Notes under the pieces: model-generated | Told to the model about the DNA's origin: nothing | Databases searched by the model: none | Seen by the model: the letters and a program-made list of their open reading frames with translations, nothing else | Program-made: the position numbers and the translations under genes | Part shown: one piece after another, positions 27,001 to 33,000 of the stretch | Layout: each line of letters begins with the position of its first letter | How positions within the stretch are numbered: position 1 is the stretch's first letter | Source of the DNA: Paracyclopina nana | Taxonomy: Eukaryota > Arthropoda > Copepoda > Cyclopoida > Cyclopettidae | Direction: 5' to 3' | Length of the DNA: 64,000 nt | NCBI GenBank assembly: GCA_019096065.1 | Contig: JAGUCH010000001.1 | Span: forward strand, 17,484,001-17,548,000

Positions 27001-30000
27001 GCTGCCTCCCTTTTGTTTTGCTGCCAGCCAGCTCAACTGCCATTATATGAATAATGTTGGTTTTGTGCCATCCCAGACTGATCACCTTGAGGTTTGCACG
27101 TTAATTTCTGTGTTTTGACGTGGCATGGCTGATGGATTTGCAGCTCAGGTCATTTACCAGACAAAAATCATTTGAATAAGCCACAACAAAGCAACAGCAG
27201 CATTATTTCACCTCTTTAGTGATTTCCTCTTTTTGAGCACAAAGAGGAGTGGCATGAGCACAGATGGGATCAAAAATCTGCCAGAATATTTAATGAGATG
27301 CACATAAACGGTTATGGTGGCTGGGTCAATGCTCCAATTGATCCATTGGAGCATCAGCACCAGGGAGAACATGCTGAAGGCCAAAGCTGCTGACTGACAA
27401 CTGGTCAAGAGGTCATCATTTCTGGCCACATTGTTATAAGCTGCTGGGATGGGTGGTGCCACAGGGGTTGACAGGGATCTTTTCTTCATGTAGCATACCA
27501 AGTTCAGGATTACCAGAGAGATGGTTGAAGCAACATTGAGGCCCAAGGAAGTCCTATAGAATAATATGATGGAAATGATTTGCATCAGATTCTTTGAATG
27601 CTGAGATCTACTCACACCAAGTAGCTGAGTCGACTGCAAGGAGAGACATTAGCTTTTGATAGGCCTGACAGAAACATGAATGTTATACACTGCTGTCGTA
27701 CTCAGTCAAGATAAGCTTTGACGCCAAGATACAAAAGATGGTTGTCATGTTCCACACATTGAGAAAGGTTGCGACAAAGTCATCTGGAATGTAAGCGAAG
27801 CGATGCCATTTGAAAGCCACGCTCACCTATATGCGCGGTATATATAACGTTACTGGGACATAGAATTGCACACCCGGGCTATTGGGACCCGAATGAACAC
27901 GATCAATTTTAAGGCCCTTAGGCCTAGAAATTTCAACTTTTTAAATTTTTTTCATAAAATATAGGCCTTCAGGCCCCTCTGGGCCAAATTTCATAAAAAT
28001 CCAAGGCCTTCATTTTTTCCATGTTTTATTGGGACATGAGCATGTGCAAATTGCTATTGGGACATCAATCCACATGCACTGTTGGGACAAAAATGTACAA
28101 ATTGCTATTGGGACATATATGAACATGCACTATTGGGACCAAAATGTGCAAATTGCTATTGGGACATCAATCCACATGCACTATTGAGACCAACATTATA
28201 AAATGCTATTGGGACTGAAATGAACATGCACTATTGTGATATAAATTAACACTTTGGGCCAATACACTTTGGGCCAGTAGACTTTGGGCCAATAGACTTT
28301 GGGCCAGTAGACTTTGGGCCAGTAGACTTTGGGTCAGTAGACTTTGGGCCAGTAGACTTTGGGCCAGTAGACTTTGGGCCAGTAGACTTTGGGCCAGTAG
28401 ACTTTGGGCCAGTAGACTTTGGGCCAGTAGACTTTGGGCCAGTAGACTTTGGGCCAGTAGACTTTGGGCCAGTAGACTTTGGGCAAACAAGCTTAAAGGA
28501 GCTGAATATAACTGAACAGTGCATTTTTGTCCCAATAGAAAGAGTGCTTTTCTCCCAATAGAAAGAGTGCTTTTGTCCCAATAAAAAGTGTGCTTTTGTC
28601 CCAATAAAAAGTGTGCTTTTGTCCCAATAAAAAGTGTGCTTTTGTCCCAATAAAAAGTGTGCTTTTGTCCCAATAAGAAAAGCTTTAGAAATTAAGGAGG
28701 AGCCATAAATAGCCAATCATTTAATTACCTCAACAAATCCCCACAATATGGGGTAAAACGATTTACTTTGCCTCACACTAGAAGTCAAGCTGCCTCAAAT
28801 TAGCAGCCACAACTGACATTTTGACTCAAAATTGACCTTATCAGGGATTTCGCGTTTTCTTAGCAGTACATTAGTAGAATTACACGATGCGCAAGTTTTG
28901 GCTCTAGCAAAATCAGAATGTGTCAAAAGTATGACTTTGCCTCACATTTTGGGTCCAATTGCCTCAAATTATCAGCCACTACTGACATTTTGACTCAAAA
29001 TTGACCTTATCAGGGATTTCGCGTTTTCTTAGAAGTACATTAGTAGAATTACGCGATGCGCCAGTTTTCGCTCTAACAAAATCAGAATGTGTCAAAAGTA
29101 TGACTTTGCCTCACATTTTGGGTCCAATTGCCTCAAATTAGCAGCCACTACTGACATTTTGGCTCAAAATTGACCTTATCAGGGATTTCGCGTTTTCTTA
29201 GCAGTACATTAGTAGAATTACTCGATGCGCAAGTTTTGGCTCTAGCAAAATCAGAATGTGTAAAAAGTATTACTTTGCCTCACATTTTAGGTCAAATTGC
29301 CTCAAATTAGCAGCCACTACTGACATTTTGACTCAAAATTGACCTTATCAGGGATTTCGCGTTTTCTTAGCAGTACATTAGTAGAATTACTCGATGCGCA
29401 AGTTTTCGCTCTTGCGAACCAATCATGAGTCAAAAGTTTGACTTTGCCTCACATTTTGGGTCCAATTGCCTCAAATTAGCAGCCACTACTGACATTTTGA
29501 CTCAAAATTGACCTTATCATGGATTTCGCGTTTTCTTAGCAGTACATTAGTAGAATTACGCGATGACATAATGTTAAAAGATGGTCACAAATGGTCCCTT
29601 ACGACATTCCTTCAAAGAGCCTTTTTGCCTCAAGTGGACTTGACATTAAGTTCAAAGATGGTCCAAAATGGTCCCTGAGTCATAAAATGAGTCATTGATG
29701 GTCAAAGTTTTCAATTTGAGTCATTTAGACAAACTTGACTCATGTACCAGAATCATTTCTGAAGTTTGAGTTGCTAGCTTGGCCAAGTAGAAAAATGCAC
29801 ACTCTTTGTTGGACCATTCTTTCAAAGAGCCTTTTTGCCTCAAGTAGACTTGACATTATGTTAAAAGATAATTCAAAATGGTCTCTGAGTCATAAAATGA
29901 GTCATTGATGGTCAAAGTTTTCAATTTGAGTCATTTAGACAAACTTGACTCATGTACCAGAATCATTTCTGAAGTTTGAGTTGCTAGCTTGGCCAAGTAG

Positions 30001-33000
30001 AAAAATGCACACTCTTTGTTGGGACATTCCTTCAAAGAGCCTTTTTGCCTCAAGTGGACTTGACATTAAGTTCAAAGATGGTCCAAAATGGTCCCTGAGT
30101 CATAAAATGAGTCATTGATGGTCAAAGTTTTCAATTTGAGTCATTTAGACAAACTTGACTCATGTACCAGAATCATTTCTGAAGTTTGAGTTGCTAGCTT
30201 GGCCAAGTAGAAAAATGCACACTCTTTGTTGGGACATTCTTTCAAAGAGCCTTTTTGCCTCAAGTGGACTTAACATAGTGTTAAAAGATGGCCTAAAATG
30301 GTCCCTGAGTCATAAAATGAGTCATAGATGGTCAAAGTCTTCAATTTGAGTCATTTAGACAAACTTGACTCATGTACTAGAATCATTTCTGAAGTTTGAG
30401 TTGCTAGCTTGGCCAAGTAGAAAAATGCACACTCTTTGTTGGACCATTCTTTCAAAGAGCCTTTTTGCCTCAAGTAGACTTGACATTATGTTAAAAGATA
30501 ATTCAAAATGGTCTCTGAGTCATAAAATGTGTCATAGATGGTCAAAGTTTTCAATTTGAGTCATTTAGACAAACTTGACTCATGTACCAGAATCATTTCT
30601 GAAGTTTGAGTTGCTAGCTTGGCCAAGTAGAAAAATGCACACTCTTTGTTGGGACATTCTTTCAAAGAGCCTTTTTGCCTCAAGTAGACTTAACATAATG
30701 TTAAAAGATGGTCACAAATGGTCCCTGAGTCAAAAAATAAGTCACAAAAAGTTACTGAGTGTAATCTGTGTCATTTCTGCTATGTCAGCTGTATGGCTTG
30801 AGTAACTTGTTCAAGGCAAATAATGCACACTCCTTGTTGGGACATTTTAAAAATTCCAGTTATTATAAAGCTTTAAGACTTTTTAATTAATAAACCTATG
30901 TTTTAGTGAGCTTATTTGTCCCTTTTATCCTAAATACTTAATTTGACTTATTTTCATGAGTCTACATTAAGTCCTAATAATACATGTTTATTTTCAAAAA
31001 TGCACATGCTTTATTGGGACAAATGCACACGTTTTAGTGGGAAAGGTTGCGTGATAATCAAAAATTAAAAATAGAGCATGTGCATTTTTTGCAATTTTCA
31101 TGACACTATTGGGACATTTTAGTTTTAAGTTTAAATTAATCAGGGGGGTCCAAATAGCCAGAAAAACACGTTTTTAGAAAATGTCCCAATAGCCCGTCCC
31201 AATAGCCCAAGATCGCATTTTTTATGTAGCGCTATTAGGACGCCATGTCCCAGTAACCGTCATATGAGGAACACCTTAAAGAGCGTTTTTTCGCACATCA
31301 GACATCCAAAGTGAAAGTACTGGCCATTGCTGACTGTCAAATACAACTTGCTTGTCCAGTCACCTTAAGTACACTCATGAGCGCATTCTATTTGAAATAC
31401 ATGTTGAAAGTACGTTACATACCTAGTGGGCCAAATGTGAACCTAGCCACAGCAATTGGCATCGCAATGATATTGGCCAGCATGATGCCGATACAGGCTT
31501 GATAGACCAATTGGTTGCTCACTGTTCGCTTGAGTGGATCCATGCCAAACTTTTCGTACTGCATGACCAGGATCAACAGTCCATTGCCAATTGTTTCCAC
31601 AATGACAAGGCTGCCTACCATGGATGCCACCACATCCAGATTGCCATAAAATCCTTCGATTGGATCATGAACGAAACTTGAATTATTCATTCTTGTCAAT
31701 GCTGCTCTTCGCAAGTGATAAATGATTGCTCTCTTTTTTATTGAGATTCAGAAATGGAGAGAAGATTACAGTAGCAATGACAGATGAATTCTCTATTCAA
31801 ATGTTGTGATGGTTGATTTCCATGGCGATTCCATTTGTTTGTAAGGTATCACTTTGAGATACCAAGGAGAGAGCGAGGACACTTTTCATCACATTGAGTG
31901 ATGTTATTTTTCAAGACATTTTCCTTGTGGGTCATTGAAAGCCATAAGTTTACCAAAATCTGGATTTTTTTTGGTATTGACAAGAGAGGCCCACGCATTA
32001 TATGGCCCATGTAAAAAGTTCATGGATAAATTGTCTGTCGATATGATGATGGGGCTGCCATGACACTAATTATATACGGCACACGCTTCAGACTTGAGCC
32101 ATTAAAATACAAACAGCTTCTTGCCTTTAACACCATGAGACAATTGTCATTAGATCTTTTGTTCCAATAATAGTTATGGTGATGATGGCATTTTTTCAAA
32201 GGGTTTTTTCTGCTGCCAACATTCCTCAGTGAGCTGACTTTAAAAGCATTCTTTTTATTGCCCTATTCAAGCTCAGAAAAGCATGGTTTAATCAAAAGTT
32301 CCAACATATGGCTTTTATCAGGGCTGAAAGTGAAAAAAATGATGTCACTTCAGATGGGTTAATTGCTGTTGATTCATCCATGCCATAGTGGAATGGTTAT
32401 TTTTGCTCTCATAATTAATGGACTTGAGTGAAAAATAACAAATCAGTTGGGCATCAGCATGGAAGGGAGAAACTCAACAAACACAAGTATCTTTGTCGAT
32501 CCAGTTGATGGATCATATGGAGATCCTGGTTTGTTGGCCATCATCTTCAGCTTCTTTGCGCTGACGGAAACCATTGGCAATTGGCTGCTGATCAAGGTCA
32601 TGCAGTATGAAAAGTTTGGCATGGATCCCATGAAGCGAACAGTGACTAACCAATTGACGTCTCAGCTCTGCATCGTTGCTTTCATAGGCAATATCATCAA
32701 CTTGCCACTTGTGGTGACTAGGTTCACATTTGGCCCACTAGGTAAAACTTGAGAGCACTACTTTAAGTAAATGCTTACGCCCAAACCATTGTTTGCATAG
32801 GTTCTTTTTGCGCTAAATTGAGCCTTTCGTTCAGCAATGGTTGCACTTTCATTGCGATGCTAACGTTTGCTGAGATATTTCTAATGAAGGCTTTCGTGCC
32901 GTTCAAATGGTTTTGTGTGAAGTGGGCTCCAGATGACTTTGTCGCAACCTTGTTTGCATTGTGGAACATTACAATTACATTTGCTATCTTGGCGTCCAAA

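What the first reader, a model, noticed from the sequence alone, without database searches (positions are those of the whole stretch)
27827..31274. Repeat-built element splits a receptor exon but could be spliced out exactly in frame
Seen: receptor exon 2 on minus stops matching its paralogue after AAG (31275) and resumes at GTGAGCGTGGC (27826). The junctions read AAG|GTGTTC and CATATAG|GTGAGC, so a GT-AG intron of 3448 bp would join K-V-S-V-A-F-K-W where the paralogue has K-A-F-V-P-F-K-W: same length, same phase. The insert has inverted ACGKTTACTGGGACAT ends and only satellite-like content. Inference: a TIR element landed in an exon and may have become an intron at birth, or simply killed the gene.
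Basis: partly seen in the sequence, partly recalled or inferred. Interest (0 to 1): 0.72.

Follow-up and report, generated by a model that had tools for sequence, protein, structure and literature searches.

The report
Mobile repeat element splitting receptor gene
A very young mobile DNA element, packed with tandem repeats and apparently coding for nothing, has landed inside a receptor-like gene; its ends look like intron borders, so the cell might cut it out of the message exactly, but that is untested and the gene is more likely damaged.

Summary
A 3,448-bp insert (31274..27827, minus strand) splits exon 2 of a receptor-like gene. Without it five exons give one 274-aa frame, and the paralogue has no intron at the site. 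The insert is one of 16 end-paired copies (3.4-21.7 kb; one lacks the outer left end) of a satellite-packed mobile family. Empty counterparts of two other copies show clean insertion: nothing deleted, and nothing duplicated beyond at most one G in the family as a whole. GT...AG borders flush with the insertion are a family trait (14 of 15 copies with both ends), so exact removal would restore the target. Against it: the gene's three other introns are 57-89 bp, the insert holds stronger donors, the nearest copy is identical outside one array (no time for selection), and another copy lies antisense in a coding exon. No enzyme partner was found. The architecture recalls Helentron-derived elements, but a 3' palindrome and T-T target were tested and not met. 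Best reading: a recent insertion that probably disables the gene; exact splicing about 0.2.

The parts
27827..31274 (-). the inserted element, 3,448 bp, 5'-GTGTTCC...CATATAG-3'
   Evidence: 15 further paired copies, one of them without the outer left end
31245..31257 (-). left subterminal inverted repeat GTTACTGGGACAT, 17 nt inside the left end
27849..27861 (-). right subterminal inverted repeat (ATGTCCCAGTAAC on the minus strand), 22 nt inside the right end
31273..31274 (-). GT at the left border (possible splice donor, AAG|GTGTTC)
27827..27828 (-). AG at the right border (possible splice acceptor, CATATAG|G)
29603..30744 (-). 210-bp tandem array, 5.4 units
28791..29565 (-). 169-bp tandem array, 4.6 units; holds all 15 differences from the nearest copy
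28525..28676 (-). 23-bp tandem array, 6.6 units
28251..28484 (-). 15-bp tandem array, 15.6 units
28042..28236 (-). 51-bp tandem array, 3.8 units
31423..31690 (-). split receptor-like gene, exon 1
31275..31333 (-). split receptor-like gene, exon 2 upstream part
27691..27826 (-). split receptor-like gene, exon 2 downstream part
27618..27633 (-). split receptor-like gene, exon 3
27208..27553 (-). split receptor-like gene, exon 4 with stop
32459..33490 (+). head-to-head paralogue with uninterrupted exon 2 (span approximate, read by hand)

Best explanation
The insert is a very recent copy of a non-autonomous, satellite-packed mobile element that integrates cleanly in front of a G, preferring about TNYTTNTG|GTGT, deleting nothing and duplicating at most one base in the family as a whole. 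It landed in exon 2 of a receptor-like gene in sense orientation. The element's own first and last bases (GT...AG) make a potential intron that would restore the old sequence exactly. The most likely outcome is that most transcripts are not spliced at those borders and the gene, or this allele, is disabled: a retained insert adds four codons and stops after residue 113. Shown: family, ends, empty sites, frame. Inferred: mobilisation by an enzyme supplied from elsewhere, and the loss of function.
For: 16 end-paired copies with sharp ends; the pattern searches list 15 left ends, identical over 24 bp, and 18 right ends with at most 2 mismatches over 28 bp, none further at up to 3. Empty counterparts for two copies, two each: the flanks run on without gap (BLAST; sequences). 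Target motif over 15 sites: +1 G 15/15, +3 G 14/15, +2 T 11/15, -1 G 11/15, -6 pyrimidine 14/15, -8 T 11/15. Youth: the nearest copy differs at 15 sites, all at element positions 1962-2246, and at none of the others. Stop after residue 113 if retained. The gene's other introns are 89, 57 and 64 bp; an apparent one in the window's P4-ATPase-like gene is 51 bp (counted). 14 of 177 GT sites (border included) outscore the border donor.
Against: The border donor (4.37) is about equal to two of the four local donors scored (7.56, 4.48, 4.40, -0.41; human-type matrix written from recall) and better than a third. The border acceptor is middling, not bad: 76 of 192 AGs, itself included, have an equal or better pyrimidine tract, and only two others reach 0.75 with C or T before the AG. 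One host acceptor in this gene also ends TATAG. Splicing is therefore not excluded. The gene is otherwise intact. No transposing enzyme was found, so mobility rests on copies and empty sites alone.
Confidence: 0.68

Rival explanations
1. The insert is removed from the transcript at its own GT and AG and works as a new 3.4-kb intron; the protein is unchanged.
For: GT-AG flush with the insertion and exact 274-aa frame; GT...AG ends in 14 of 15 copies with both ends; removal restores the target exactly; border donor like two of four local donors, acceptor middling.
Against: Length about 40 times the gene's three other introns; stronger internal donors; only 1 of 16 copies is clearly in sense in a coding exon, so no sign of selection for splicing, though the coding test is weak; one exonic copy is antisense, where the borders read CT-AC; very young.
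Confidence: 0.2
2. The element is a non-autonomous Helentron/Helitron relative moved by rolling-circle enzymes of this genome.
For: Clean insertion, subterminal inverted repeats, central tandem arrays, as in the passages; T-rich left half of the target, and mite HINEs are said to prefer T-rich sequence; 7 Helitron_like_N matches, 5 over the cut-off, all on C2, two of them 7.1 and 8.0 kb from the family member C2_17.16.
Against: No 3' hairpin beyond shuffles; inserts before G, not between T and T; repeats 17 and 22 nt from the ends, not about 2-4 and 38-60 (mite HINEs); apart from C2_17.16 itself no copy of these ends is listed near the Helitron matches, but that region could not be read.
Confidence: 0.3
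3. The element is moved by a site-specific recombinase through a circle (Crypton-like), the right-end ATA/GGA/AGA/GTA/GTG variation being carried-over flank.
For: The three bases before the final G vary among otherwise close copies and, in the one variant copy with an empty site, do not come from the target; GTG stands on both sides of most insertions.
Against: No Phage_integrase match; no Resolvase match; of two DUF3504 loci the one read has no pair of these ends and looks like a host gene, the other was not readable; inverted symmetry of the outer ends is not significant (0.11).
Confidence: 0.25

Closest known systems
HINE / DINE-1 elements (non-autonomous Helentrons), PMC4067079 and PMC7492417 (passages seen)
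   Same: no coding, subterminal inverted repeats, central satellite-like arrays, no target-site duplication of several bases
   Different: no 3' palindrome found, target before G (TNYTTNTG|GTGT) instead of T|T, inverted repeats set differently; copies 3.4 to 21.7 kb
Introners (intron-creating non-autonomous transposons), PMC9860276 (passages seen)
   Same: splice-like borders, exact removal leaves mRNA length unchanged; the paper says that some Introner families lack duplications or inverted repeats
   Different: reported families have 5 to more than 2,000 copies and median lengths of 30-654 nt; here one clear sense exonic copy, 3.4 kb, no shown splicing
Spy and other DNA transposons without target-site duplication (Spy: title in a reference list; the paper itself not held; otherwise recalled)
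   Same: clean insertion without duplication
   Different: no transposase-bearing partner found; ends and target differ from what is recalled for Spy; not tested

Membership tests
HINE / Helentron | no target-site duplication | tested here: met
   empty counterparts of two copies; a one-base G duplication cannot be excluded
HINE / Helentron | subterminal inverted repeats | tested here: met
   13 bp, 17 and 22 nt inside the ends
HINE / Helentron | central tandem repeats | tested here: met
HINE / Helentron | short palindrome (stem-loop) near the 3' end | tested here: not met
   last 34 nt fold at 0 kcal/mol; last 74 nt form a stem about 44 nt from the end, but 141 of 200 shuffles fold as well
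HINE / Helentron | insertion between T and T | tested here: not met
   a G follows the insertion in 15 of 15; the left half of the target is T-rich
HINE / Helentron | ends shared with an autonomous Rep/helicase element | tested here: inconclusive
   no unpaired left end among 15 listed, but the Helitron-bearing region of C2 is unread and the held genome may be incomplete
Introner | copies are spliced from mRNA | not testable with these tools
   no RNA data
Introner | borders supplied so that removal is exact | tested here: met
Introner | several similar introns at exonic positions in sense | tested here: not met
   1 clear sense exonic copy of 16 examined; weak coding test
TIR DNA transposon with target-site duplication | inverted repeats at the very ends | tested here: not met
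   repeats are 17 and 22 nt inside; outer ends 0.11 against shuffles
TIR DNA transposon with target-site duplication | duplicated target of two or more bases | tested here: not met
   left always GTG, right GTG, GAG, GTC or GCG over 15 copies, so only G is common
Crypton | tyrosine recombinase gene in a partner | tested here: inconclusive
   PF00589 none; two PF12012 loci, one read without a pair of ends, the other unread

The most novel reading that the evidence does not exclude
A mobile family whose termini make every sense insertion an exactly removable GT-AG intron without needing a duplicated target: kilobase-scale, satellite-filled introns born in one step and passed unnoticed by the host gene.
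Probability: 0.15. Interest if true: 0.8.

Novelty: new variant of a known kind. Interest (0 to 1): 0.42.

Why it matters
The birth of introns from mobile DNA is usually seen only after the fact. Here the nearest copy is identical outside one array, the old frame is readable, empty counterparts of sister copies are in the same genome, and one RNA experiment would tell whether a 3.4-kb insert is an intron at birth or a knockout. The element type (clean insertion before G, subterminal repeats, satellite core) was not placed in a named superfamily by the tests run here.

Tried and rejected
Classical TIR transposon with a target-site duplication of two or more bases: rejected. In C4_9.51 taken alone a GTG duplication could not be told from clean insertion, and in C1_14.11 a GT one; across 15 copies only G is common. 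Ancestral intron at the site: not supported by the paralogue. Segmental duplication instead of transposition: rejected, because no 400-bp flank of one copy matched a flank of another (that listing left out perfect matches over 300 bp, meant as self-matches, but the short flanks printed all differ). Coding content: no ORF outside the arrays in the window copy; the long ORFs of the 21.7-kb C7 copy look like a nested Ty3/Gypsy-type retroelement (name from recall). Enzyme partner: Phage_integrase none, Resolvase none, Helitron_like_N 7 matches on C2, DUF3504 5 matches at two loci, one locus read: one left-like and one inner-repeat-like chance hit with up to 3 substitutions, no right end. Inverted symmetry at a putative circle joint: 0.11. 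That two right-end variants (GGA, GTG) equal the left flank of another copy was seen by eye; I judge it within chance, without a run. C2_17.16 looked like a second sense exonic insertion, but its left flank holds a tRNA gene call and repeats, so it was not counted. In one search the rows under C6_6.57 are artefacts of a one-base right flank and were dropped. The codon score was trained partly on the receptor-like genes themselves, and the true Kelch frame scored 15.0, under its 95% null mark of 17.3, so it misses coding DNA. The organism was not identified.

Full report
What is there. The window is C1:17484001-17548000 of an unnamed 92-Mb assembly held in 10 contigs. Its introns other than the insert measure 89, 57 and 64 bp. 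Between 31275 and 27826 stands an insert of exactly 3,448 bp that begins GTGTTCC and ends CATATAG. Left in the message it would add four residues and stop after residue 113. The head-to-head paralogue on the plus strand runs through the site without an intron, in the same phase and at the same length; these two places are the only matches listed for that exon at E<=0.001 (17 candidates scored). The two genes share 115 of 262 aligned residues, dN/dS about 0.5.

What the insert is. Its content is tandem arrays of 210, 169, 51, 23 and 15 bp, and all 11 ORFs of 50 aa or more overlap them. Searches with its two ends listed 17 left and 23 right matches. Sixteen left matches pair with a right match in the same orientation, 3.4 to 21.7 kb apart; the size differences look mainly like array length. 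Fifteen have the left end identical over 24 bp. The sixteenth, on C7, lacks the outer left end and carries ORFs that look like a nested Gypsy-type retroelement (name recalled). Not counted: a 0.5-kb deleted copy on C2 without outer ends, and copies or fragments found by the right end only, on C1, C2, C7, C8 and C9. Pattern searches with up to 3 mismatches listed 15 left and 18 right ends.

How it inserts. Two copies lie in sequence that also exists without the element. C4_9.51 has two empty counterparts, both in L048; C1_14.11 has two, in L011 and L039, neighbouring repeat units of its own surroundings. In all four the two flanks run on without a gap (BLAST; sequences). Nothing is deleted. As to duplication: the left side always reads GTG, the right side GTG, GAG, GTC or GCG over 15 copies, so at most one base, G, could be duplicated in the family as a whole. 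The insert proper is therefore GTGTTCC...CATATAG, up to a base of ambiguity, before a target G. Over 15 sites the preference is about TNYTTNTG|GTGT. Inverted repeats exist, but inside: 13 bp, 17 and 22 nt from the ends. The three bases before the final G vary among copies (ATA, GGA, AGA, GTA, GTG) although the copies are otherwise close. In the one variant copy with an empty site they do not come from the target; I have no proven explanation.

Splicing. Because the element starts with GT and ends with AG (14 of 15 copies with both ends; C4_8.145 ends GG) and adds nothing else, removal at those borders would restore any sense target exactly. The border donor scores 4.37 against 7.56, 4.48, 4.40 and -0.41 for four local donors; 14 of 177 GT sites outscore it; the border acceptor is middling, with 76 of 192 AGs, itself included, having an equal or better pyrimidine tract (human-type matrix written from recall). 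No RNA data are available. A codon score over 400 bp on each side passed the 99% null mark in 2 of 16 copies: the window copy, in sense (its gene was in the training set), and C1_0.315, antisense, where the joined frame matches GST_C_6 at 8.9e-18 (the name FAXC is recalled) and a 46%-identical relative exists on C2. The other 14 stayed under the 95% mark, among them C2_17.16, which lies beside a real Kelch-like frame, so the score misses some coding DNA; C6_6.57 was examined on its left side only. There is no sign that splicing shapes where copies are found, but the test is weak.

Age. The window copy and the copy at C1:11.13 Mb are both 3,448 bp and differ at 15 positions, all at element positions 1962-2246, within the 169-bp array; elsewhere they are identical. 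The insertion looks too recent for the gene to have decayed or for selection to have tested an intron.

Class. HINE/Helentron elements share the lack of duplication, the subterminal repeats and the satellite core (passages of PMC4067079 and PMC7492417). The 3' palindrome and the T|T target are not met, so I do not file it there, although the left half of the target is T-rich and C2_17.16 lies 7.1 and 8.0 kb from two Helitron_like_N matches in a region I could not read. Integrase and resolvase families gave nothing; the one DUF3504 locus read has no pair of these ends. Introners are defined by spliced copies; the paper gives median lengths of 30-654 nt and families of 5 to over 2,000 copies, some without duplications or inverted repeats (PMC9860276, passages).

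Verdict. A real, very young insertion of a non-autonomous element of unsettled class, with intron-like borders as a family trait. Loss of function is more likely than exact splicing, which I put at about 0.2.

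Noticed in passing
C1:315156-323338 (L058): An 8.2-kb copy of the same family lies antisense inside a coding exon with a GST_C_6 domain; a 46%-identical relative exists on C2.
   Followed up: partly
C7:5725935-5747638 (L064-L066): The longest copy (21.7 kb) lacks the outer left end and holds what looks like a nested Gypsy-type retroelement (name recalled).
   Followed up: partly
C2:14.49-14.66 Mb and 17.15-17.26 Mb: All 7 listed Helitron_like_N matches lie in two clusters on C2, near two members of this family (C2:14458106, 36 kb away, and C2:17160608-17167338, 7-8 kb away).
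   Followed up: no
right ends of the paired copies: The three bases before the final G vary (ATA, GGA, AGA, GTA, GTG) among otherwise close copies; three of the variant copies group together in the tree, with weak support.
   Followed up: partly
window 529-3435: A P4-ATPase-like gene (name recalled) with over 850 codons without an apparent intron, then an apparent 51-bp intron.
   Followed up: no
window 25766-26462 and 20727-21088: Further tandem arrays (26-bp and 93-bp units among others) whose units do not resemble the element's by eye.
   Followed up: no
L048 1032-2106: Two inverted copies of one repeat flank a right-end fragment of this family; both serve as empty counterparts for C4_9.51.
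   Followed up: partly
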